This document shows positions 2,567 to 19,159 of a DNA stretch of 23,625 nucleotides, one piece after another; position 1 is the stretch's first letter; every line of letters begins with the position of its first letter. Both the position numbers and the translations under genes were made by a program. The notes under the pieces were generated by a model. It was given only the letters and a program-made list of their open reading frames with translations. It ran no database searches and was not told the DNA's origin. The DNA comes from a virus. The stretch covers positions 1 through 23,625 of the IMG/VR virus record IMGVR_UViG_3300017593_001363. One strand, given 5' to 3'.

Positions 2567-3226
2567 CACGTAATCTTAGTTTTTCAACTAAGCGTGGACT
2601 ATCCCTTTATCCGGGGCAATTACTTGTAACATGCCTCGGATAATCCGCATCTTACGACCCAGCAACTTTTTTAAAAGTTGAAGTGAGTCGTCGTCTAAAG
2701 GACTCTTGAAGTGCTCTTTCATAAACTCTTGACCCATCCTTCCATGTAACCGAGCGTGTTCTGACAGAGTCATAACTGCTAAGTTACACCGCCTACAATT
2801 AAATGGATTCCCATCGATATGATGAACTACTTCCTTCTTCTTCATAGGTCTACCCAAAACTCTCTCTGCAACTAACTTATGCACTCCACAGTAGTCTTGC
2901 TCTTCGTTTCTCCTACCATTCTTAGATGCTTTAGGATAGAAGTTTATAACTCCCCCTGAATTCCTATGCTTCTGGACATGAGCCCATTTAACAATATCCA
3001 AATCTTGTCTATCTACTAATAGCTCAAATCTTCCGTGCTTCGGCGAATCAATTACACGCACTTCAAAGTCTCCCCTAGAAAAGTCTCTGCAGGACCTTCG
3101 GTCTCTCGACCTCGATCCCTCAGGATTACCATACCCTTTCAGGCTTAGGCTTCCCTGACCGAGCGGATTTTTCACCTGCCTATTACTAGGCAGGGGCCCA
3201 ATTTTCTTAGGCGTCGTCCCTGCTAC
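2567..3226 (-). ncRNA. Group I intron B, ORF-bearing, in the major tail protein gene
   Basis: This is about 660 nt of self-splicing intron. P1: the exon end TTGGGT (3232 to 3227) pairs with internal guide GCCTAA (3212 to 3207), with the diagnostic U.G at the splice site. P2: CCTGCCTA-GTAA-TAGGCAGG (3194 to 3175). The P4-P6 region includes AATCCTGAG and the GGTC-GAGA-GACC hairpin. The 5' strand of P7 is in GCAGAGACT near 3090. The HNH gene fills the loop between the two P7 strands. The 3' strand of P7 is in GGATAGTCC near 2605. P9: CTTAGTT-GAAA-AACTAAG (2592 to 2575). The 3' splice site is taken as GTG|AGT, which ends in G and keeps phase 0. GAG|TGT is a second option. The intron itself is clear; the exact 3' end is less sure. 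Confidence 0.88.
2588..3061 (-). CDS. HNH homing endonuclease encoded inside group I intron B
   Basis: This 157-residue protein should cut the intronless allele of the tail gene to spread the intron. Its C-terminal half has the HNH core: HKLVAERVLG, then VVHHIDGNPFNCRRCNLAVM and SEHARLHGR, as in I-HmuI-type phage enzymes. The N-terminal half (HGRFELLVDRQDLDIVKWAHV) is the usual recognition segment of this group. I chose the GTG at 3061, preceded by GGGGAGA, because everything further upstream in this open frame is intron core and exon 2. A start at 3238 would translate P1 to P7. The TAG stop lies inside the P9 stem, so gene and ribozyme overlap by a few bases. Length is close to known intron HNH enzymes (about 170 aa). 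Confidence 0.9.
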   Translation of the reverse strand: MRVIDSPKHGRFELLVDRQDLDIVKWAHVQKHRNSGGVINFYPKASKNGRRNEEQDYCGVHKLVAERVLGRPMKKKEVVHHIDGNPFNCRRCNLAVMTLSEHARLHGRMGQEFMKEHFKSPLDDDSLQLLKKLLGRKMRIIRGMLQVIAPDKGIVHA

Positions 3227-3264
3227 ACCCAATAACAAGGTGCATGGACCTAAACTGAAGTTAT
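3227..3264 (-). other. Exon 2 of the major tail protein gene (38 nt)
   Basis: This short exon lies between the two introns and completes residues 3 to 15 of the tail protein (Y/NFSLGPCTLLLG). The NFSLGPC segment is typical of the N-terminal strand of siphoviral tail tube proteins. An in-frame TGA just upstream (within intron A) shows that the region before 3265 cannot be coding in this frame. Boundaries are predicted. Confidence 0.7.
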
Positions 3265-3517
3265 CCGTTGTGTACGTTGGTCAGTTTGTTACACCGCTTT
3301 AAGCAGGAGCAGGTCATTTCTGCCTACTTCTCTATGTCGCCACAGAGCTCAGACTATCTCTTCATCCTATTACTAGGAGCTACCCGTATAGTCGTTGCAC
3401 CTTCCCTAATGTTAAGGGCTTGGCTCAGGATTGTCTCACTATCATGAGAGTTCCCCTGAATTTGAGTAGTTTGCTGTTTATCATTACTGATAAATGACGC
3501 AGCCAACACCACGTTGT
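3265..3517 (-). ncRNA. Group I intron A, compact and ORF-less, in the major tail protein gene
   Basis: This intron of about 253 nt has a core very like the cyanobacterial tRNA-Leu (Anabaena) intron: TCAGGGGAAC, then GACAATCCTGAGCCAAGCC, then GGGAAGGTGCAACGACTA and GATAGTC. Visible stems are P2 TTTATCA-GTAA-TGATAAA (3494 to 3477), P8 TCCTA-GTAA-TAGGA (about 3378 to 3365), P9 CTCTGTG-GCGA-CATAGAG (3347 to 3330), and a further stem AAGTAGG with CCTGCTT (3329 to 3301). All three capped stems end in GNRA loops. The guide GTGTTGG (3509 to 3503) can pair with exon end TTGGCAT through several wobbles. The splice CAT|...|AT keeps the frame and gives MAYNFSLGPC. The class is sure; the ends are the best reading-frame-consistent choice. 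Confidence 0.88.
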
Positions 3518-3524
3518 ATGCCAA
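3518..3524 (-). other. Exon 1 of the major tail protein gene (7 nt, TTG start)
   Basis: The predicted start is TTG at 3524, six bases after the strong ribosome site GGGGGTG (3537 to 3531). Only TTG GCA T is exonic; ligation to exon 2 gives TTG GCA TAT AAC TTC (MAYNF). The nearby GTG at 3533 is part of the ribosome site and has no spacing. Unspliced message would read about 50 codons into intron A before a stop. Confidence 0.62.
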
Positions 3525-4222: not shown

Positions 4223-4993
4223 TTACCTCATTAAATAAGAGGAGGCAGCTCTTGATATTTTCGCATTAACCAACGCTGTTGCCATCTTTGGCTCAACCCC
4301 TTTAATCATGAGTCCTCCTACAATCGGACCTGTTATAACTTTATGGTACATCCGTTTACTAATACCCAGGTACTTACCGTTACAAAAAACCTCAGCAGTA
4401 CGCCCCACACGAGCAGCGTTATACATTTTAGATGTTACCGCTGTTGCACCGGGTAGCACTTTTGAAATCCATTTCATAAGTCGAGCAGCCTTATATAAAT
4501 CTGTAATTATAGCCCACTTTTTAGCCTCTTCAAAACCTGAGGCTACTAAATCAGGAAACATCGGTCTCACTATCTTTAAGCTTTCACCCATAAAATCCCT
4601 GCCGATCATCCGAGGTGTACCAAACAATACCGCTCGAGCATAAGGACAACCAGTCGCTTTCGTCTCATCTATACCGATCCAAGACATTAATCGAAACCCT
4701 GTCCTCTTAAATCCTTTCCTTATTGAGCCTAATAATCTATGAGTTTGTGTATGAACTAACCAAGGCCTTTCCGGATGAGGATTATGCGGATTCATAACAG
4801 AGTATGGATGACCTAATTTAGCTAGAGCTTTCAAAGAGTGACAAGTTGCGCTAATGTTGAACTTTACTTCTTTCTCTAAAACATCTGCAGCCTCTTGCAC
4901 ACGTAAAGCAGTAGTTGCCTGTAACGCTCCTTCAAAAGCAGCTATCTTCCATATCGTATTGCCGATACCAGTCATTGAACTCCCTAACTCCAC
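4223..4993 (-). CDS. HK97 gp10-like head-tail/tail completion protein with C-terminal extension
   Basis: This is a 256-residue protein with a GTG start overlapping the previous stop (TAGTG) and GGGAGG five bases upstream. The N-terminal 150 residues resemble the gp10-like tail component family: a helix with VQEAADVLEKEVK, a basic segment, then LLGSIRKG, YARAVLFGTPRMIGRDFMGES. The last stretch corresponds to the family's Y-A-x-x-x-E-x-G-T-x-x-x-x-x-R-P-F signature. Residues 165 to 256 are an extra Ala/Gly-rich region (VLPGATAVTSKMYNAARVG, GPIVGGLMIKGVEPKMATAL) not usual in gp10. It has amphipathic or membrane-like helices and its role is unknown. It is followed at once by the terminator gene, as in HK97-type modules. 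Confidence 0.68.
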   Translation of the reverse strand: MELGSSMTGIGNTIWKIAAFEGALQATTALRVQEAADVLEKEVKFNISATCHSLKALAKLGHPYSVMNPHNPHPERPWLVHTQTHRLLGSIRKGFKRTGFRLMSWIGIDETKATGCPYARAVLFGTPRMIGRDFMGESLKIVRPMFPDLVASGFEEAKKWAIITDLYKAARLMKWISKVLPGATAVTSKMYNAARVGRTAEVFCNGKYLGISKRMYHKVITGPIVGGLMIKGVEPKMATALVNAKISRAASSYLMR

Positions 4994-7338
4994 TAAGGCC
5001 TCCCTAACCTTCTCCTACCTACTATAACAGCATCTTGAATATAATCTTTTACCCCATCCAACACGTTGTCGATTATTTCTCTTATTGCAGAACCTGGTGG
5101 CGACAACTTTTGAGCCTCTATTAACCAACCTTTACCTTGCCTCATTAATAACAATCCGAGCTCCTTCTTAGCTAACACAAATTTCGGATTCAGTTTACAA
5201 GCCTTCTCTAGGTATTCAATCCCTTTCTTAGGCATACCCTCATTAACGTAGTGCAGCGCTAGATTAAAGTAAGGTCTTGCATCCTTTGGATTATCCTGCA
5301 TCTGTAATTTGTTCAACCTCTCATATCTCTGTAACTTCTTCTCCACCTCTTCATCCGACTTCAAATATCCTAGATGGTCTATCATAGTGAGTGCTTCTTT
5401 TAGTTTAAATTTTCTTTTTCCACTTGTGACAGACTCCTCTATAGTTTCATGACACCTACCGGTATAATAAATATCTGGGTCTCTTCTGAACAACCTGAAT
5501 GACTGAGATAACGTAAACATGTTGTTCTTTTGTATATTCCTCACGCGGAATGAATAAGCATCTGCCCCCATTTCCATCATTTTAAAGATAGCAGGCCAGT
5601 TGCCAACCTTTTCATCCGGATCTAATTGCATACACCATTTGGTTGTACACTTGCTTAAAACAAAGTTCCTAGCTCTCGAAAAATCATCATTCATATCAAA
5701 ATCGAAGATCCTAGCCCCAAATCTTTTCAAAACCTCCTTCGTGTTATCTTTCGTCCTTGAATCGACTCCTACAAACATTTCATCGAAATACTGACTATTA
5801 ATATTTAAAAATTCCTCGAGACTCTCCCCCTCATCTCTAACAATCATAACTAATCCCAACGAGTTATCTTCCACCCACGGGTACAGCTCGAGAGATGACT
5901 CATCAATGAAATGAGAGTAGTCGCCAGCACCTCCGACTAACCTCGGATCTTTATCCTTATCTATTTTTACATAATAATTGTATTTTTCTCGACACAACTC
6001 AGGTGTACAATACCCATAATGTTTAAATCTGAGCGGGCAATAAGTATAAGCGTAAGACAAGTCAACAGGGGCAACAATGTGTAAACCCCCTTTGTACGTC
6101 TGAGCAATTTTTTGATTGGGTCTATTTTTGAACATTCTTATACCGGCTAACCTACCGAAAATTCCGTCTCCTCTAATATTTGTTTCCCCTCTCCAAAACG
6201 TTGCAATCTTAAAAGAATAAGCAGCAATACTTGGATCCTTAGGATTCATCAACCTTTCAACATATTTCCTAGTAAACCTCTCCTCAGGTACCTCATCTCC
6301 GTCCACCATAATAAACCAGTCTGCCTTCTCTTGTTTACCCCATTTTAGTAGTTCTGTTCTGTCACGGTACTCATCAAATGGTCTCTTGTAAGACCTACAT
6401 TTAACTTTCGGGAATTTTTTAGCAATAGACAACGTCTTATCAGTTGAACCATCATCTAATAGCAAAATCTCATCGCAGAACCTGCTGCACGCTTTAAGCG
6501 ACTCACCTATCCACTCCTCCTCATTTTTAACTCTGTAAAGAGCAACGAGCTTATTCTTATTCTTTCTCCTCTCAATATACTTTTCCATATACTTCTTCCT
6601 ATTTTTCAACCCACGCCTCATATAACTTAAGGCCGGCATATCCAACGTTTTGGAACCGAAGTGATGGACAAAAGTATCCCCGCAAACTACAGCTTTATAT
6701 CCTAATTCTAAAGCATCTAACACAAACGAGTTATCTTCAAATCCGCCAGGATTAAATCTCTCGTCAAATCCGCCTACTTTATCGTAGATCTCCCTCGTTA
6801 ATAACATACAGAAACCAGATAAGAAATGAACTGATGTCCATCTACCAACATTTTGTATATGATATTCCTCCGCAAACCTATCTAAACTTTCAAGCGAATA
6901 ACTAGCACCTCTAGCGACTTGATAACCTGAGGCGTAATTAGAAACAGGTCCAACTATCGCCACATTGTCTGCATTTTGTCTTCTGCCGAATTGCTTCATA
7001 CATCTTAAAAGTTGAGTTAACCAAAGTGGGGTAGTAATCACATCATTATTTAGAAGCATAATATATTTTCCCTTACTTACTTTTACCCCATCGTTAACTG
7101 ACCTCACGAAGCCTTGTCTTGATACATGATGTACAACCTCTGTCACAAATGGCTTCTCCTTTTTCAATGTTTCAAAGACAGCGCCGGAGCTATCTGTTGA
7201 ACCATCGTTTATTAAGACAACCTCATACGTGTCAGGCTTCGTATTTCTCTCAACCGATGCAATACACTGAACAGTATACTGCAGGTTATTGTAAGCCGGG
7301 ATTACTATAGTTGTTTCAGGCGTCTGCGCCTCTACCAT
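4993..7338 (-). CDS. Three-domain glycosyltransferase (GT2 x3) with TPR-like tail
   Basis: This 781-residue protein has three consecutive GT-A family 2 type domains. Domain 1 (8 to 250): TTIVIPAYNN, LINDGSTD, the metal-binding NND at 97 to 99, and GGFEDNSFVLDALELGYK. Domain 2 (264 to 480): LVALYRVKNEEEWIGESL, LLLDDGSTDKT, DGDE at 346 to 349. Domain 3 (495 to 660): LGLVMIVRDEGESLEEFL, GVDSRTKDNT, DPDEK at 573 to 577, closing with HETIEESV. Residues 668 to 745 look like two TPR repeats (ARPYFNLALHYVNEGMPKKG, then CKLNPKFVLAKKELGLLLM). All DxD-type motifs look intact. No signal peptide or membrane segment is seen, so it acts in the cytoplasm, perhaps on virion proteins or a soluble glycan. The ATG overlaps the previous gene and has ATAGGAGG upstream. 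Confidence 0.9.
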   Translation of the reverse strand: MVEAQTPETTIVIPAYNNLQYTVQCIASVERNTKPDTYEVVLINDGSTDSSGAVFETLKKEKPFVTEVVHHVSRQGFVRSVNDGVKVSKGKYIMLLNNDVITTPLWLTQLLRCMKQFGRRQNADNVAIVGPVSNYASGYQVARGASYSLESLDRFAEEYHIQNVGRWTSVHFLSGFCMLLTREIYDKVGGFDERFNPGGFEDNSFVLDALELGYKAVVCGDTFVHHFGSKTLDMPALSYMRRGLKNRKKYMEKYIERRKNKNKLVALYRVKNEEEWIGESLKACSRFCDEILLLDDGSTDKTLSIAKKFPKVKCRSYKRPFDEYRDRTELLKWGKQEKADWFIMVDGDEVPEERFTRKYVERLMNPKDPSIAAYSFKIATFWRGETNIRGDGIFGRLAGIRMFKNRPNQKIAQTYKGGLHIVAPVDLSYAYTYCPLRFKHYGYCTPELCREKYNYYVKIDKDKDPRLVGGAGDYSHFIDESSLELYPWVEDNSLGLVMIVRDEGESLEEFLNINSQYFDEMFVGVDSRTKDNTKEVLKRFGARIFDFDMNDDFSRARNFVLSKCTTKWCMQLDPDEKVGNWPAIFKMMEMGADAYSFRVRNIQKNNMFTLSQSFRLFRRDPDIYYTGRCHETIEESVTSGKRKFKLKEALTMIDHLGYLKSDEEVEKKLQRYERLNKLQMQDNPKDARPYFNLALHYVNEGMPKKGIEYLEKACKLNPKFVLAKKELGLLLMRQGKGWLIEAQKLSPPGSAIREIIDNVLDGVKDYIQDAVIVGRRRLGRP

Positions 7339-12271: not shown

Positions 12272-14044
12272 TTATGCTTCCGCCCTAAAAGCACTCCCTT
12301 TTATACTATAACCTGTAAGCTCCCCACTTTCGATCTTATCCCTTAGCGCCTTAGACTTTATTAAAGTACCTAAGATCCAACTACCCTTTCTAACTTTCTG
12401 ATTTTCCCAATTAAAATCTATCGGAGCTATATACGACTCAACAACATAACAATCCTTTGATATAAACCAATGATTAATATCAATCTTTCTTGATTCTATT
12501 AGAAACTTATGAGCAGCCCTTTCTATTTCCTCCGCTGTCTCCGAATCCCCTTGCAAATCTACTACGTCCGGTTCTAACACAACCCCATATACAATCCCTT
12601 TCTTCTTATCATATTTCGCAATAGGAACGTATAAATCTAAAGACTTAGTGGTAGGGGTTGCTGACCTCTCAAACAACCACATATTCATTCTAGGGTCTTC
12701 CTTCTTAAACGTAAACAACCCCTTCAACTTCTTCCCCTTAACTTCAACTTTCTTAAATTCACTAGAATCCTCTAAAATTCGACATTCTCCTTCATCTGTA
12801 ACTATTATCATTGATGGAGTATTTTTCGACGGATTTAACCGTGTTTTTGGCCGAATATCGACCTTCTCTCTTAAACCTAGACTCATATCTTCCTTGTATT
12901 TATGTGGCTCCCAGATAGCAGTAACGCTTTCATTGACTAAAGGGTCTCTTTCTAAAACAAAGTGAAATAACTTTTCTTCTCCGACATCGCAGTTAAAATG
13001 ATATTCCTTCGTCGTCGGTCCGAATCTAATACTAATAGGTCCGCGCCAGGTCTGCTCCTGTATTGTGAATTTACCCTTTCCTGCCATCTTAAGCAGTGAA
13101 TACTTAACTATTTCATCCCTCAAACGCTTAGCCTCTTTAATATCTTTCGCCTTCCAGTACTGATGACTTACAGGTATTTCTTTACGTACACTCTTTGGTA
13201 AACAAGAGAAACCTAAGGGCCCAATCCACCCTTTCTCAACAGCATCTTTTGACAAAACATATGGCGTCTGGTTGATTGGCTGAATGCATAACCAAAAAGT
13301 ACGAGCCCTTGCCGGTAACGGTTTACCCTCGGGTAATATTTCATCCTTTTCAATTTGTGATAACTGCTTATTTATTTTTGACTCATTCACCTCAAGATAA
13401 GTTTCTACTGCCTCATCTGACATTTTAGCGATAGAGGGGGCAATCGACCTAGGTAGCTGTCTGAAAACAAGTCTACCTTTAATTTTACCATTCTTATAGA
13501 AGTACTCGTGGCTATATGCTTTCTGTGAGCCGTATTCTACTAAACCTTTATCAACAATTATCATCACCCCAGGATGCTCTTTCGTTGCACCAGGTGACCC
13601 CGCAGGTATAACTCCCTCGTGGGTTAGCCATTCAACCGGCTCAGAAGATTTTGTAGTAGCGTACAAGTTCGCTCTTCTAACTCCACCTCTGGTTCTCCTC
13701 TCTTTAAACTTACCTGTCTTCCAGTTAATCTTCCAAATGTCCTTCTTAGCTAGTGCACGTGCCTGAGCTAGCGTTGTTACATCTTCCTTTATTTTACCAG
13801 GCATTAAGGAGCTAATCGTCCATCCGACAAGAAACCTCTCAACAGCCTTTTCAACTTTTGCCACCCATTTATCTCCAACTTTCTTATATTTCATTTTAAA
13901 ACGTGTCCAAGCAATAGCACCAGGATACTTCGAACCTTTATCTCTAGCCTCGTCGAAATACCTAGCCCAAATATTTACCTGGGCTAGGGTAAGCCCTGCT
14001 GTCCTTAACGCTTTTGGAACCTCTGATAGCTTATCGTATGGCAT
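12272..14044 (-). CDS. Prohead protease fusion: ChaB-like, LigD phosphoesterase-like (x2) and XkdF protease domains
   Basis: This is a 590-residue protein. Residues 1 to 65 are ChaB-like (PYDKLSEVPKALR, then AIAWTRFKMKYKKVGDKW). Residues 68 to 198 match the later part of the LigD 3'-phosphoesterase domain: FLVGWTI, WLTHEGVIPAGSPG, VMIIVDKGLVEYG, GKIKGRLVFRQL. The first strands and His/Asp/Arg motif are missing here but occur at the end of the 967-aa protein. Residues 325 to 460 are a second, weaker copy (FTIQEQTWRG, SMIIVTDEGECRI, GKKLKGLFTFK). Residues 474 to 590 are the XkdF/S78_2 putative prohead protease domain (IVYGVVLEPDVVDLQGD, INHW, VVESYIAPIDF, GELTGYSIKGSA). The protease would mature the capsid before packaging. 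Start ATG with GGGGTGAT upstream. Confidence 0.85.
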   Translation of the reverse strand: MPYDKLSEVPKALRTAGLTLAQVNIWARYFDEARDKGSKYPGAIAWTRFKMKYKKVGDKWVAKVEKAVERFLVGWTISSLMPGKIKEDVTTLAQARALAKKDIWKINWKTGKFKERRTRGGVRRANLYATTKSSEPVEWLTHEGVIPAGSPGATKEHPGVMIIVDKGLVEYGSQKAYSHEYFYKNGKIKGRLVFRQLPRSIAPSIAKMSDEAVETYLEVNESKINKQLSQIEKDEILPEGKPLPARARTFWLCIQPINQTPYVLSKDAVEKGWIGPLGFSCLPKSVRKEIPVSHQYWKAKDIKEAKRLRDEIVKYSLLKMAGKGKFTIQEQTWRGPISIRFGPTTKEYHFNCDVGEEKLFHFVLERDPLVNESVTAIWEPHKYKEDMSLGLREKVDIRPKTRLNPSKNTPSMIIVTDEGECRILEDSSEFKKVEVKGKKLKGLFTFKKEDPRMNMWLFERSATPTTKSLDLYVPIAKYDKKKGIVYGVVLEPDVVDLQGDSETAEEIERAAHKFLIESRKIDINHWFISKDCYVVESYIAPIDFNWENQKVRKGSWILGTLIKSKALRDKIESGELTGYSIKGSAFRAEA

Positions 14045-14078
14045 TTATATCACCCCTTCATCCTGCATGTACTTAAAA

Positions 14079-14861
14079 TCATTTTAAATACTCTGGTAAC
14101 AATCTACTTAAAACATCAGGGTCATTTTTATGTTTTTCAAACCTATTCCTAATTTTCTCCTCAGTAACATGTATATGTTGAATAGTAGCCCCAGTCCTAA
14201 TCTGTCTAGGACTCAGTCTCGCTTTCCTACCGTATATCTGTCTTTCTATAGCGATATCTAAATCTACGTTTGCCCAATGAGCTCCCCAAAAATGCTCCTT
14301 CGCCTCTCTAATATGAGTCCCCTCAATATTAGTATGAAAGCCTGGATTCCACTCGATACCCGCCTCAGGCCTAACGATCACCGGCTTACAATAAGTCCAA
14401 TTCGGATGCGAAGTAAGATCCGGGTCACCATGCACTCTTTGCGTCAGCACAGGCCTGCTGACATCAAGATCTTCATCTGTAACGTGTTTGTACACCTGGA
14501 ACATTTTAGCACGAACCATATTAAAACTGTTTTGCTTTGCTAAGAACTCCTTTGCTGAATTGTAACCTCTAGGAGGAAAAATAAATTCGTCAGAATCTAT
14601 CGCGTACACCCAGTCGAACTTATTTGCCAGGGTTTTAACAAACTCATTAACGTGGTCTACTTTCAGATAATCATCGAACCCCTCAGGAAAACAGAAATCG
14701 ATTATCTCAACGTTATCGTAATTCTCGCAAATCGACCTAGTGTTATCACCTGTATCAACATCTAAAAATAAAAAGATCTTGTCTACATAACTGTATAACT
14801 TAAGAAAGAACGGGGCCAAATCCTCCTCGTTATACCAATGTGTAACAATTGCTATTTTCAT
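14079..14861 (-). CDS. Glycosyltransferase, family 2-like
   Basis: This is a protein of about 260 residues with a GT-A fold start KIAIVTHWYNEEDLAPFFL, the segment KIFLFLDVDTGDNTRSI, and a DxD metal site in DWVYAIDSDEFIFPP. Later come Trp/His-rich acceptor-side motifs (GFHTNIEGTHIREAKEHFWGAHW) seen in the Glyco_tranf_2_4 type. I prefer ATG 14861 (MKIAIV) because its TG overlaps the methyltransferase stop and GGGTG sits eight bases before it; ATG 14873 adds four residues. It is the last gene of the radical SAM-methyltransferase-glycosyltransferase cassette. Substrate unknown. Confidence 0.85.
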   Translation of the reverse strand: MKIAIVTHWYNEEDLAPFFLKLYSYVDKIFLFLDVDTGDNTRSICENYDNVEIIDFCFPEGFDDYLKVDHVNEFVKTLANKFDWVYAIDSDEFIFPPRGYNSAKEFLAKQNSFNMVRAKMFQVYKHVTDEDLDVSRPVLTQRVHGDPDLTSHPNWTYCKPVIVRPEAGIEWNPGFHTNIEGTHIREAKEHFWGAHWANVDLDIAIERQIYGRKARLSPRQIRTGATIQHIHVTEEKIRNRFEKHKNDPDVLSRLLPEYLK

Positions 14862-15382
14862 AAATACACCCATACTAAAACTCTAACTGGTCCGTGTATC
14901 TCTTTAAAAGTTTCATCTACCGCTTGTTTAACTCCGCCGTAAACTCCGCCATAATCGTGGAAAGCAATAATACTGTGCGGTTGTAACTTACTCCGACACA
15001 ATTCAGTATCCCTTTTTACATCTTCATATGTATGCATCCCATCTATAAAGGCAAAATCAAATATAGGATCGAGCTTCGGTATAACATCTGCAGACTTACC
15101 AATGTGATATATTATATTATCCCAACCTTCAATATTCGCCTTAAACTTATCCAGCGTTGTAAACTTACCCATCTGTGTCTGACCATTAGCGCTAGCTCTA
15201 AAAGTATCTACAGTGTGAACAACCTTTGCAACTTCTGCCAAACACAGAGTACTTTTCCCTAAAAAGCTGCCTATTTCTAAACACGTTCTACCCCTCGCAA
15301 GCTCTTGTAACTTTGCAACCTCTGATACTCCTAAAAAACATGTGCAGTAGCCACTTATATCGGCCCAGTGCTTCTTACCCAT
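14858..15382 (-). CDS. Class I SAM-dependent methyltransferase (Methyltransf_24 type)
   Basis: This 174-residue protein has motif I in CLEIGSFLGKSTLCLAE (about 34 to 50), the acidic end of strand 2 in VVHTVDTF (D59), and the post-I core FDFAFIDGMHTYEDVKRD (D114). The closing SIIAFHDYGGVYGGVKQAVDE is typical of O-methyltransferases that act on sugars (CmcI/Methyltransf_24 group). No target recognition domain for DNA is present, so nucleic acid methylation is less likely. Its ATG overlaps the radical SAM stop, with GGAGG seven bases upstream, and its own stop overlaps the glycosyltransferase start, so the three genes are one translational unit. Confidence 0.87.
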   Translation of the reverse strand: MGKKHWADISGYCTCFLGVSEVAKLQELARGRTCLEIGSFLGKSTLCLAEVAKVVHTVDTFRASANGQTQMGKFTTLDKFKANIEGWDNIIYHIGKSADVIPKLDPIFDFAFIDGMHTYEDVKRDTELCRSKLQPHSIIAFHDYGGVYGGVKQAVDETFKEIHGPVRVLVWVYL

Positions 15383-16247
15383 CTCTATACCTCCATCCGT
15401 GCACCATATCTGCTCTCATATCTCCCCGGTAGTTACCCGGATCCCAACTCCATTTTAACTTCTCTAACTCTTCGATAGTAAATTTCTTCTCAACTAATTC
15501 CACATCCTCCTTAGACAAACGTCTCAACTTATGCTTCTTAAATATTTCCAAAAGATGAGCTGAGAACTTTTCTTTCTTAACAGAGAGAGGTTCCCTTTTC
15601 ATTGGAACTGCTGCCCCGCACAAACCACAATACCTTTTAACTTGATCTTGAAAGTCTTCAGGCTTTTTATTCCACCAACCCTTTTTAATCGGATAGCCAC
15701 CCGGGCCATCTAAAAGGCTATCGAGAGCTCCCGCGACCTCACAAAAAAAGCACCCCTTCGGAGTTATCGTTGGACACCAAGTTCTTTGGAGCCAGCAATT
15801 ATTGATTAGTTCTTTTCTATATTCTATATCCTCCACGACATCATCTGCAGCAACTGTTATCGGTTGGTGTAAGCAAACTTCCTTCTGATACTCATCATGT
15901 TCATTATACGCAACAAATCCAAAAGTCTCATCTATTAACTCCTTATACCCATCGTATTTCGTAGAACCAGAAGACCACAATCCTACCTTCTCTCGCGGAA
16001 CCTCTTTTTGTAAAATCAAACATATCTCTTCAAACTGAGGATGCAGAGTTGGTTCACCTCCGATTATTCCTATCTGTTTAGGCCAACCTTCCAGAGACTC
16101 AAGAGCTTTACGGAAAGTATCTATACTCATATTGAACTTTTGGTCCGGTCTCAGGTGCCTAATATACCTGGTACAATAAGCGCACCTCTGTCCACAAACA
16201 TTAGTTACATCGATCTGGCATAGCCATGCATCGTATATAGGTTTCAT
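15375..16247 (-). CDS. Radical SAM protein with extra C-terminal cysteines
   Basis: This 290-residue protein has the 4Fe-4S motif CxxxCxxC at C18, C22 and C25 (VCGQRCAYCTRY) and the GGEP motif at 63 to 66 (IIGGEPTLHP). This part of the AdoMet radical fold is complete. Further cysteines at 151, 158, 166, 169, 207 and 210 (CPTITPKGCFFCE, YCGLCG) could hold an auxiliary cluster as in SPASM-type enzymes. The tail is rich in Trp/Arg/Lys. AGGAGG precedes the ATG. The substrate is unknown; with the methyltransferase and glycosyltransferase downstream, a role in making or modifying a sugar or a virion peptide is the simplest guess. Confidence 0.9.
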   Translation of the reverse strand: MKPIYDAWLCQIDVTNVCGQRCAYCTRYIRHLRPDQKFNMSIDTFRKALESLEGWPKQIGIIGGEPTLHPQFEEICLILQKEVPREKVGLWSSGSTKYDGYKELIDETFGFVAYNEHDEYQKEVCLHQPITVAADDVVEDIEYRKELINNCWLQRTWCPTITPKGCFFCEVAGALDSLLDGPGGYPIKKGWWNKKPEDFQDQVKRYCGLCGAAVPMKREPLSVKKEKFSAHLLEIFKKHKLRRLSKEDVELVEKKFTIEELEKLKWSWDPGNYRGDMRADMVHGWRYRDG

Positions 16248-16255
16248 ATAACCTC

Positions 16256-19159
16256 CTATTCATTTTCATTTCTTAAATCGTTGTGGGCGCTCTTCCTTAT
16301 AAAGTGGATCTGTATAACATACCTATAATCCTTTTCCTCAGGGGGCAAATGCATATAAGGATCCTGCTTCAAAAAATACCTACCATCTTTTTCAACAAAC
16401 CTAAAATCAGTATTTAAATTATTTTGTTCGAAAAACTCAACTATAGACTTTTCAACTTCAATAAAGTCCGGTACCTCTCCAACTAATACCTCAGTACCAT
16501 CCTTTTTTAACGGAATACCATATATGTTAACTTTTTCAACTAACAATCCAGACTCCCTTCCTATCTTTAAAGCTGATGCAAAGGAGTCGGGAGCTGCATC
16601 AGATGCTCTGTACTCATAAAACGCAGGTTCGTAAAACTCCAACTTATGCAACCCGGTCCGCGGATCAGTATAGTAATTGACAGTATGAAACTTAACAGTT
16701 ATTATACCACCTATTGGTACTTTAACTTTCGTATTGAAACAGCGGCCGACCTTAGTATACTTCTTACCTTTCACTTCAACCACAGTTTTAGGGTCGACTC
16801 TATCCTGTGATGTAAATGAGAGTGCGTAGTCGTAGTTATATACGCCTTTTGTTTTAGTTTCCGTTGCCTTCCAAACTATACCGTGAACCTCTGCCATAGT
16901 TTTTAGCTTAAACACCTCATTTGTAGAACCGGTCAGAGTATACCTCATATCTACTTTCTTTACCATGGCCCCTTCACTACCGATAGCACTAGCACATTTA
17001 CGCAGAGCAGCCTCCAACTTTTTAACAGTATTGCAGAAGAATGAAGGTGAAAGATTCAAGTGACTTGTCTTAAAAGAGGGTTTATCTAATGTTGATTGCA
17101 GGAACTTCAAACTTTTCAATCTCTTCAACCTATCACTATAAGGATTCTTATGAATATCCCCATCGTAATATTGCATATCGAAACAATTAGCTACAATTCC
17201 ACTATCGTCTATTGGCTCTTTAGACTTTGGATTTAAGTGGCCAGCGACAACCTCTCTAGGCTGGTGCACTCCCCCCCTCCACCATTCAATTTCGCAATCC
17301 AAAATGACAGCATGCATCCCAACTAGTTTCTTCACATCCGCTTTTAATGAGGGTAATCTAGATGTATAATCCTCACCTTGATCACTAAAAACTTTAAACC
17401 TGCCTTCTCCGTCCCAATGCAACTGCGAGTGTATGCCATCATATTTCTTTTGGGTTATTACCGGGGGAATTTCGGTCCCTAACTCTTCCTTCTTTGCTAA
17501 ATCCTTCAAAAACTCAACCATAGCTTCAACACTGTATTTCTCACCTTTGCGGTATCCCATTAGTGGCGAAATGGAGGTCTTTTGAGGATAGAAAAATCTA
17601 AATAGTACGACTTTATCCTCCTTTTTAGATGCTTCTGCCTTTGCTTTTGCTTCGGCAGATACTGCTTTACTCAACTCTCTTTTAATCCTATCCCTAATAT
17701 CTGGGTTTGTATTATCTTTCCATTTTTCTCCGACTGCTCCGCCCTCAACTCTCTTAATTTCATTAATATCGCTGAAGTTCCTCCTATCATGCTCACTATT
17801 CACCCACTTTCTAAGACAATCCTTACAAAACCACGCCCTTGCCATTCCCTCTGCCCAAAGGACCTCGTACTCAGGAGGCTTATCACACATCATACATTTA
17901 TCTTTACGGTAATTTACTTTTTCAACGCTCCTCTTGAAATCCTTACAGGCTGGGTCACTTGCGTTTACCTTCTTATTCTTCAAAGTGCACTTACCATCCT
18001 TAAAGTATTTACAATTACCACAAACCTTATCGTCAATAACAGGCTCCTCTAATATTCTAATTGTACCACCTGCTGGGCCTGTAGTTAACTGCTTGCTCTT
18101 ATAAAACTCTTTTGCGAATTCAGGCTCGTTCATCTCCTCAAACTGCAAAGGGTTTCTTGGAACTAGGCATAAATCATAAGCAGGTAAGTTTTTCCAGTTG
18201 GGACCATATCGCGTCCCATGCCATTCAACATCATTCTTAGCTGTGCCAAATCTATCTCTAAACAACCGGTCCACCTTCAACCGTAACTCTTTATCTAATA
18301 CTAGTATCAACCTATTCCCATCTTCCTCTGCTCTCGCGATAATATCCATATCATTTGGTTCTCTATCTTTTGCATAAACTTTGCTGCCGGAGACTGAGAT
18401 GAACTTAGGTATCCACACAATAGACGGAAGCTTAATTTTAGCTAAGTCCATTTGTTCAAGAGTTGATTTCCTCAATAGATACTCTTCCTTATTTTCAAAC
18501 TTACCTATCGCGTCCTCAATTAACTTCTTCTTTTCAGAATACAAACACCCGATAACTTCCTTCCCTTTCAACAACTCTCGCAGCCTATCCACAAAAAGCT
18601 CCCTTGATTCTTCGTTGAGAAGGTTAGGTGGAAAATCGTATTTAAATTCTGGTGCTAACGAATCTGCGTATCTAATTAAAACGACAGGTTCAGAAACGAT
18701 TAAGGGTTGATAATCAGGGTATTTTAAAAATAGCTTTTGGAAGGAGCCTCTATGAACTACAGATAGAGGGATTGGTTTTGTTTTCGCACAAGGAACCAAT
18801 AAAACTTTCCTTACCCCTTTCAACCAACTTCTCATGAAATTAAAATACCAATCATACGCGTGAAAGGCAGCAACGCCATCTTCCGCCTTTCTAACTTTAG
18901 GTGGACTAAAGCCACCCGGGACTAACGACTTCTTAAAACGCCGGGCTGCTCTGTCCAACGGATTATCTTTCAAGTCTAAATCTATACCCCTTTCCTTTAA
19001 CTTAGCGCTAATCAGATAATGTATCCTAATAATATCTTGGTTAGTAAAGTTAGTAGTCTTATTGTATAACTGGTGACAACGGTGATGCAATTGTAATAGT
19101 TGAGCTTTAGTCTCATTATCGAGCTTGGATGGATGTTCTAAAATTTCTTCAAATTCCAC
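16256..19159 (-). CDS. Multidomain protein with ATP-dependent DNA ligase core
   Basis: This is a 967-residue protein. Residues 115 to 205 (VRKVLLVPCAKTKP, LIVSEPVVLIRYADS) resemble the DUF5591-like fold seen with archaeosine enzymes. Residues 245 to 335 look like a nucleotidyltransferase (SVSGSKVYAK with NDMDII). Two zinc units follow: 380 to 408 (CGNCKYF, GKCTL, PACKDF) and 422 to 448 (CMMCD, FCKDC). Residues 515 to 850 are the ligase core: motif I KYDG with lysine 572, motif III DCE at 621 to 623, motif IV SEGAMVKK near 728, motif V KLK at 751 to 753, then an OB-fold-like part. The C-terminus (RYVIQIHFIRKSAHNDLRNE) is the start of a LigD phosphoesterase domain and then stops. It should seal DNA nicks. 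Residues 363 to 376 repeat a capsid protein peptide. Confidence 0.88.
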   Translation of the reverse strand: MEFEEILEHPSKLDNETKAQLLQLHHRCHQLYNKTTNFTNQDIIRIHYLISAKLKERGIDLDLKDNPLDRAARRFKKSLVPGGFSPPKVRKAEDGVAAFHAYDWYFNFMRSWLKGVRKVLLVPCAKTKPIPLSVVHRGSFQKLFLKYPDYQPLIVSEPVVLIRYADSLAPEFKYDFPPNLLNEESRELFVDRLRELLKGKEVIGCLYSEKKKLIEDAIGKFENKEEYLLRKSTLEQMDLAKIKLPSIVWIPKFISVSGSKVYAKDREPNDMDIIARAEEDGNRLILVLDKELRLKVDRLFRDRFGTAKNDVEWHGTRYGPNWKNLPAYDLCLVPRNPLQFEEMNEPEFAKEFYKSKQLTTGPAGGTIRILEEPVIDDKVCGNCKYFKDGKCTLKNKKVNASDPACKDFKRSVEKVNYRKDKCMMCDKPPEYEVLWAEGMARAWFCKDCLRKWVNSEHDRRNFSDINEIKRVEGGAVGEKWKDNTNPDIRDRIKRELSKAVSAEAKAKAEASKKEDKVVLFRFFYPQKTSISPLMGYRKGEKYSVEAMVEFLKDLAKKEELGTEIPPVITQKKYDGIHSQLHWDGEGRFKVFSDQGEDYTSRLPSLKADVKKLVGMHAVILDCEIEWWRGGVHQPREVVAGHLNPKSKEPIDDSGIVANCFDMQYYDGDIHKNPYSDRLKRLKSLKFLQSTLDKPSFKTSHLNLSPSFFCNTVKKLEAALRKCASAIGSEGAMVKKVDMRYTLTGSTNEVFKLKTMAEVHGIVWKATETKTKGVYNYDYALSFTSQDRVDPKTVVEVKGKKYTKVGRCFNTKVKVPIGGIITVKFHTVNYYTDPRTGLHKLEFYEPAFYEYRASDAAPDSFASALKIGRESGLLVEKVNIYGIPLKKDGTEVLVGEVPDFIEVEKSIVEFFEQNNLNTDFRFVEKDGRYFLKQDPYMHLPPEEKDYRYVIQIHFIRKSAHNDLRNENE

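What the first reader, a model, noticed from the sequence alone, without database searches (positions are those of the whole stretch)
14044..16310. A LigD-type phosphoesterase domain is split between two proteins by a three-gene cassette
The 967-aa protein ends with RYVIQIHFIRKSAHNDLRNE, which matches the N-terminal strand and His/His/Asp/Arg motif of LigD phosphoesterase domains (known pattern F-V-I-Q-x-H-x5-H-Y-D-L-R), then stops. The missing remainder (FLVGWTI, HEGVIPAGSPG, VMIIVDKGLVEYG, KIKGRLVFRQL) is found in the 590-aa protein after a ChaB-like domain. Between them lie radical SAM, methyltransferase and glycosyltransferase genes. The simplest history is insertion of the cassette into one giant gene. 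Neither polypeptide has the full domain, so it either reassembles from two chains or is dead.
Basis: partly seen in the sequence, partly recalled or inferred. Interest (0 to 1): 0.83.

Follow-up and report, generated by a model that had tools for sequence, protein, structure and literature searches.

The report
Viral repair-domain gene split by cassette
In this virus a sugar-modification gene cassette, together with the front end of a capsid-protease gene, has been inserted into one very long gene and cut a small DNA-repair-type domain in two at a surface hairpin; every relative examined keeps that domain in one protein, and whether the two halves still come together to work is not known.

Summary
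The 967-aa ligase protein (16256-19159, minus) ends in the first two strands of a LigD-type 3'-phosphoesterase (PE) domain; the rest of that domain starts at residue ~70 of the 590-aa protein (12272-14044, minus). Radical-SAM, methyltransferase and glycosyltransferase genes lie between. The split is real, derived and so far unique: all 38 other viral contigs matching the first-half motif continue through the second half in one frame, and in about 70 assessable relatives none is broken there. L091 carries one 1274-aa protein collinear with both window proteins. The break maps to the turn between strands 2 and 3 of the modelled PE barrel, so almost nothing is missing. The insert is larger than stated: it includes the ChaB-like N-terminus of the 590-aa protein, which in L118 (related head genes) opens the capsid-protease gene directly behind a sugar/radical-SAM cassette. 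Function is undecided. The tail keeps all five active-site residues of that hairpin and the other half is conserved at the family median, favouring reassembly from two chains; but the tail has lost two near-invariant residues, and the whole family lacks two catalytic residues of LigD. Split enzymes made by insertion are known in phages; this is a new variant.

The parts
16256..19159 (-). 967-aa protein: NTase-like region + ATP-dependent DNA ligase domain + first two strands of PE
   Evidence: DNA_ligase_A_M 7.2e-20 at residues 566-753; NTase-like region 244-358 shared with relatives; collinear with L091
16259..16324 (-). PE strands 1-2 (RYVIQIHFIRKSAHNDLRNENE, residues 946-967) carrying Q950, H952, H959, D961, R963
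   Evidence: motif alignment to 43 relatives; strands E25-35 and E37-45 in the model of L010
16234..16258 (-). left junction: stop TAG overlapping AGGAGG ribosome-binding site and start of the radical-SAM gene
   Evidence: sequence; no Rfam element in 13500-16700
15375..16247 (-). radical-SAM protein, 290 aa (cassette gene 1)
   Evidence: Radical_SAM 1.8e-10; relatives L096 and L097 in other viruses' structural regions next to glycosyltransferase-like (and, in L096, methyltransferase) genes
14858..15382 (-). methyltransferase, 174 aa (cassette gene 2)
   Evidence: Methyltransf_24 7.6e-18
14079..14873 (-). family-2 glycosyltransferase, 264 aa (cassette gene 3)
   Evidence: Glyco_tranf_2_4 1.1e-7
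12272..14044 (-). 590-aa protein: ChaB-like helices + rest of PE + second PE-like domain + XkdF protease
   Evidence: Peptidase_S78_2 2e-30 at 475-587; AF2 model
13838..14044 (-). ChaB-like helical N-terminus (residues 1-69), part of the insert
   Evidence: best and only significant hit among 13,770 ORFs is the N-terminus of the L118 capsid protease, 39% over 75 aa, E 0.0013
13445..13837 (-). remaining strands of PE (residues ~70-200)
   Evidence: family profile; leave-one-out score 186 bits, above 24 of 43 relatives
12659..13081 (-). second PE-like domain (residues ~322-462), active-site motif lost in the window
   Evidence: profile match of this part to 3P43; intact motif in L034 and L079
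12284..12622 (-). XkdF-type capsid protease domain (residues 475-587)

Best explanation
Step 1 (shown, about 0.93): the ancestor had one giant late gene between the portal and major-capsid genes, coding for NTase - DNA ligase - PE - second PE-like domain - XkdF protease. A segment made of a sugar-modification cassette (radical SAM, methyltransferase, glycosyltransferase) plus the ChaB-like 5' end of a capsid-protease gene was inserted into it, probably by illegitimate recombination (route inferred). It landed in the turn between PE strands 2 and 3, giving two genes with no strand deleted. Step 2 (inferred, about 0.5): the two products, made from one operon, still assemble the PE barrel. The C-terminal hairpin of the ligase protein brings the metal ligands, and the protease protein brings the rest of the barrel, so the broken domain tethers ligase and protease non-covalently. 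What the PE then does (3'-end trimming, or only binding DNA ends) is unknown, because the family lacks LigD's His84/Tyr88. The confidence given is for steps 1 and 2 together.
For: Unsplit relatives: ANMV-1 has one 866-aa protein matching 967-aa residues 530-962 and 590-aa residues 73-461 back to back. A scan with a pattern made only from the first-half motif gave 38 other contigs, all open through the second half in frame; the window alone stops 2 codons after it. A second, independent pattern scan gives the same: 0 splits in about 70 assessable loci. L091: one 1274-aa protein collinear with 967-aa residues 10-59, 506-877, 885-965 and 590-aa residues 39-583. The window nests among unsplit proteins (clade support 91/90). 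Break site: the model of L010 (pLDDT about 95 here) has strands 25-35, 37-45, turn 46-51, strand 52-57; the break falls in the turn. Origin of the insert: L118, with related portal and MCP, has glycosyltransferases and a radical-SAM gene directly before a protease that starts with the same MPY...ChaB-like domain; GT+MT+rSAM occur together in L096. Reassembly: all five active-site residues of the hairpin kept, and PE second half conserved at the family median. Precedent: the split nrdA of phage Aeh1 is fully functional (PMC2988022).
Against: The tail scores fourth lowest of 44: it has Ile954 where 41/43 relatives have Arg, Arg955 where 43/43 have Gly, and Asn964 where nearly all have a hydrophobic residue. 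The 590-aa model alone has a shortened strand at the break and a broken long strand, but no co-fold could be run. A recent split would also look conserved. No relative shares the split, so its persistence is untested.
Confidence: 0.5

Rival explanations
1. The fission is real but the PE is dead: the hairpin tail and the open barrel are remnants of a recent insertion, tolerated because PE activity was dispensable or already lost in this family; ligase and protease work as separate proteins.
For: Ile954, Arg955 and polar Asn964 at otherwise conserved positions of the tail. The H84-equivalent is Glu in 20 of 24 relatives scored and the Y88-equivalent is Trp in 24 of 24, so classical PE activity is doubtful anyway. 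The second PE-like domain of the window has already lost its motif. Other viruses with related head genes have a stand-alone protease without ligase or PE.
Against: PE second half still conserved at the family median; all five active-site residues on the hairpin intact.
Confidence: 0.4
2. The half-domains have taken a different role: the hairpin is now just a C-terminal tail or tether and the open barrel only a DNA- or protein-binding platform.
For: Non-catalytic look of the family's active site; ChaB-like helices fused in front of the barrel.
Against: No positive evidence; a beta barrel missing two strands is unlikely to be stable alone (inference).
Confidence: 0.07
3. Artefact: the junctions come from a chimeric assembly or the contig is an unusual minority molecule.
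For: Metagenomic record, no relative with the same arrangement, no reads available.
Against: Both halves occur exactly once and complement each other to within a few residues of a hairpin turn, both junctions have ribosome-binding sites, GC content is even across the region, and the cassette-plus-protease order recurs in L118.
Confidence: 0.03

Closest known systems
Split nrdA of phage Aeh1, gene 60/39 of T4, 43A/43B of Aeromonas phage 25 (PMC2988022)
   Same: An insertion cuts one phage enzyme gene into two; for nrdA and 43A/43B the pieces are shown to work together
   Different: There the insert is a homing endonuclease gene (or, for gene 43, possibly an untranslated intercistronic sequence); here it is a sugar-modification cassette plus the front of a protease gene, and function of the split product is untested
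LigD 3'-phosphoesterase domain (PDB 3N9B, 3P43, 3P4H; reviewed in PMC8656161)
   Same: Same fold; Gln40, His42, His48, Asp50, Arg52 equivalents present on the hairpin
   Different: H-x6-H spacing instead of H-x5-H; His84 and Tyr88 equivalents replaced; tandem second PE-like domain; fused to a capsid protease; in the window split in two chains
ATP-dependent DNA ligase protein of ANMV-1 virus (AJP62006, KP703175; virus described in PMC4372165)
   Same: NTase - ligase - PE - second PE-like domain in one polypeptide
   Different: Unsplit, and without the XkdF protease
XkdF / Peptidase_S78_2 capsid maturation protease
   Same: C-terminal domain of the 590-aa protein, located before the scaffold-like and major capsid genes
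   Different: Carries most of a PE domain, a second PE-like domain and a ChaB-like N-terminus
Polyvalent proteins of phages (PMC5512222)
   Same: Many enzymatic domains strung in one phage polypeptide
   Different: That paper's main text does not mention XkdF or LigD, and its 'ligase' hits concern RNA ligases; injection of the present proteins is not shown

Membership tests
LigD 3'-phosphoesterase (PE) superfamily | Fold: PE beta barrel | tested here: met
   Top five PDB matches of the L010 model and top six of the 590-aa model are PE structures (in the latter the match may rest on the second PE-like domain); profile hits 3P43 and 3P4H
LigD 3'-phosphoesterase (PE) superfamily | Metal triad His42, His48, Asp50, plus Gln40 and Arg52 | tested here: met
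   Window H952, H959, D961, Q950, R963, on the ligase chain; spacing one residue longer than in LigD
LigD 3'-phosphoesterase (PE) superfamily | His84 and Tyr88 (phosphate contacts) | tested here: not met
   Window has Glu135 and Trp139; relatives Glu in 20/24 and Trp in 24/24. It is a homologue by fold and sequence; classical PE activity should not be claimed
LigD 3'-phosphoesterase (PE) superfamily | Complete domain in one polypeptide | tested here: not met
   Split between 967-aa and 590-aa proteins; unsplit in all assessable relatives
ATP-dependent DNA ligase | Adenylation domain with KxDG motif | tested here: met
   PF01068 7.2e-20; KYDG in the protein sequence
XkdF / Peptidase_S78_2 protease | Profile match above the curated cut-off | tested here: met
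   105.8 bits against a cut-off of 24
ChaB | Profile match above the curated cut-off | tested here: not met
   15 bits against a cut-off of 27; only 'ChaB-like'
Split enzyme made by insertion, functional in trans (as Aeh1 NrdA) | Unsplit homologues and a foreign insert | tested here: met
Split enzyme made by insertion, functional in trans (as Aeh1 NrdA) | Pieces assemble and are active | not testable with these tools
   Needs co-fold or biochemistry
Split intein / trans-spliced intron | Intein halves at the chain ends, or intron RNA at the junctions | tested here: not met
   Chain ends NENE* and MPYDKLSE show no intein motifs by eye; no Rfam match at E<=1 in 13500-16700

The most novel reading that the evidence does not exclude
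The split PE is a composite active site that forms only when the ligase protein and the protease protein meet, for example inside the procapsid, so that DNA-end processing or ligase recruitment is coupled to capsid maturation and ended by the protease.
Probability: 0.1. Interest if true: 0.75.

Novelty: new variant of a known kind. Interest (0 to 1): 0.5.

Why it matters
It is a clean natural case of a small single domain cut at a hairpin turn by an insertion unrelated to homing endonucleases, with unsplit relatives as controls, so whether natural fission keeps function can be tested directly. It also opens a little-described family of viral giants that join DNA ligase, PE-type domains, sometimes DNA methyltransferases, and the capsid protease in one chain, and that collect inteins and inserted genes.

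Tried and rejected
The search for related loci with the two window proteins, the terminase, and a two-sequence alignment found nothing, because the virus is far from its relatives; hand-made degenerate motifs solved this. Split intein: rejected, no intein motifs at the chain ends. Group I intron spliced across the gap: rejected, no Rfam match there even at E<=1. Target-site duplication or flanking repeats: none at the junctions. A 14-nt repeat with one mismatch (13844-13857 / 16445-16458) touches the right junction but is at the noise level of that table. Idea that the split is ancestral and fusion derived: rejected, single-chain PE is universal in assessable relatives and in LigD. Idea that the ChaB-like segment is unique to the window: rejected after L118 was found. 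Viral structure library search: nothing useful. Plasmid and E. coli collections were not searched.

Full report
WHAT IS THERE. The window is a 23.6-kb virus record carrying a tailed-virus head module on the minus strand: terminase, portal, 967-aa protein, radical SAM, methyltransferase, glycosyltransferase, 590-aa protein, a scaffold-like protein, major capsid protein. The finding's sequences and coordinates are right, except that the 967-aa protein ends ...DLRNENE, two residues later than quoted. Its ligase domain is solid (PF01068, 7.2e-20) and the 590-aa protein ends in an XkdF protease (2e-30). The LigD PE assignment is too weak to rest on Pfam (E 0.064) or NCBIfam (0.0075). A profile of relatives hits the solved PE domains 3P43 (E 3.9e-8) and 3P4H (1.1e-5), and predicted structures match PE structures first.

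THE SPLIT IS REAL AND DERIVED. ANMV-1 virus (PMC4372165) has one 866-aa protein: 967-aa residues 530-962 match its 151-510 and 590-aa residues 73-461 match its 520-863. A DNA motif from the linker after PE found 50 viral contigs, 48 of them with relatives. A second motif, made only from the first-half strand and blind to what follows, found 38 other contigs, several near-duplicates of each other: in all 38 the frame stays open through the second half, while the window stops 2 codons after the motif. In all, about 70 loci could be judged and none is broken there. Relatives do break this protein, but between domains: ligase | PE in L009, L011, L049, L059; PE | second PE in L007, L031, L034, L079. 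L091 has one 1274-aa protein collinear with both window proteins, from the helical N-terminus to the protease. In a tree of PE second halves the window lies in a clade (91/90) with L009, L072, L076, L080, L091 and L093, all with unbroken PE.

WHERE IT BREAKS. In the AlphaFold2 model of the L010 PE-PE' region (mean pLDDT 83, about 95 here) strands run 25-35 and 37-45, then a turn 46-51, then strand 52-57. The window's first chain ends at the end of strand 2 and the second resumes at strand 3: DLR-NENE | RF-LVGWTI against DLR-FETDDY-LVGWTI in L013. The turn may be slightly altered but no strand is lost. In the model of the 590-aa protein the matching strand shrinks to three residues, and the long strand 144-159 of the intact domain appears as 159-161 plus 168-175.

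WHAT WAS INSERTED. Not just three genes. Residues 1-69 of the 590-aa protein have no counterpart in front of PE in relatives. Their only significant match among 13,770 ORFs is the N-terminus of the 558-aa capsid protease of L118 (39% over 75 aa, E 0.0013, same MPY start). L118 is related by portal and major capsid protein, and directly before that protease it has glycosyltransferase-like genes and a B12-binding radical-SAM gene. Relatives of the window's own radical-SAM protein lie in structural regions of two other viruses, next to a glycosyltransferase-like gene and, in L096, a Methyltransf_24 gene. So the inserted block looks like a travelling sugar cassette together with the start of a protease gene, an order that occurs elsewhere. 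No intron RNA, intein motif or flanking repeat marks the junctions, so illegitimate recombination is the likely route (inference).

DOES IT STILL WORK? For: the tail keeps Q950, H952, H959, D961 and R963; it scores +42.8 bits against the relatives' motif where shuffles give -38.6 +/- 9.5; and the other half scores above 24 of 43 relatives in a leave-one-out test. Against: the tail is fourth lowest of 44, with Ile for Arg (41/43 in relatives), Arg for Gly (43/43) and Asn for a hydrophobic residue; Asn964 may come from the insert. LigD needs His84 and Tyr88 as well (PMC8656161); in this family these are mostly Glu and, in all rows scored, Trp, so classical activity is doubtful with or without a split. 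I put reassembly at about 0.5 and a dead remnant at about 0.4. Precedent for functional split enzymes in phages is firm (PMC2988022).

NOVELTY. The principle (gene fission by insertion) is known. The target (a PE domain with the metal ligands on one chain and the rest of the barrel on another), the insert (sugar cassette plus protease start) and the linkage of ligase to capsid protease were not found described in the material searched. It is therefore filed as a new variant of a known kind.

Noticed in passing
window 3330-3520 (-), ORF 2588-3238 (-): Group I intron (RF00028, 91 bits) followed by an ORF with an HNH-like motif: a likely homing intron in the downstream structural genes.
   Followed up: no
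L021 (IMGVR_UViG_3300013103_001392): Intein with LAGLIDADG_3 homing endonuclease inserted in the PE motif itself, just before the Ser of S-x-H-x-D-L-R.
   Followed up: partly
L027 and L048: Probable further inteins in the same protein: L027 at GAQK|CMNGKTELIV inside PE; L048 has a LAGLIDADG_2 match in front of the ligase part.
   Followed up: partly
L007, L031: About 40-aa insertion in the loop between PE strands 1 and 2, at the place of the L021 intein.
   Followed up: no
L020, L029, L021: D12-class N6-adenine methyltransferase domain fused in frame inside the ligase-PE protein; in L034 a separate DNA methyltransferase-like gene lies between PE and the second PE.
   Followed up: partly
window 4993-7338 (-): 781-aa protein with three glycosyltransferase-2 stretches and TPR is a conserved gene of this virus lineage (L100, L101, L105, L106, L109, L111, L114 at E 1e-136 to 1e-155).
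   Followed up: no
L067 1688-2752: Methanosarcinales relative whose PE motif reads SVHLYFLLQ: metal Asp and Arg lost, unlike its near neighbour L059.
   Followed up: no
L118 2748-8177: Five consecutive sugar-related-looking genes (incl. an RGP-family protein and a B12-binding radical SAM) between portal and capsid protease.
   Followed up: partly
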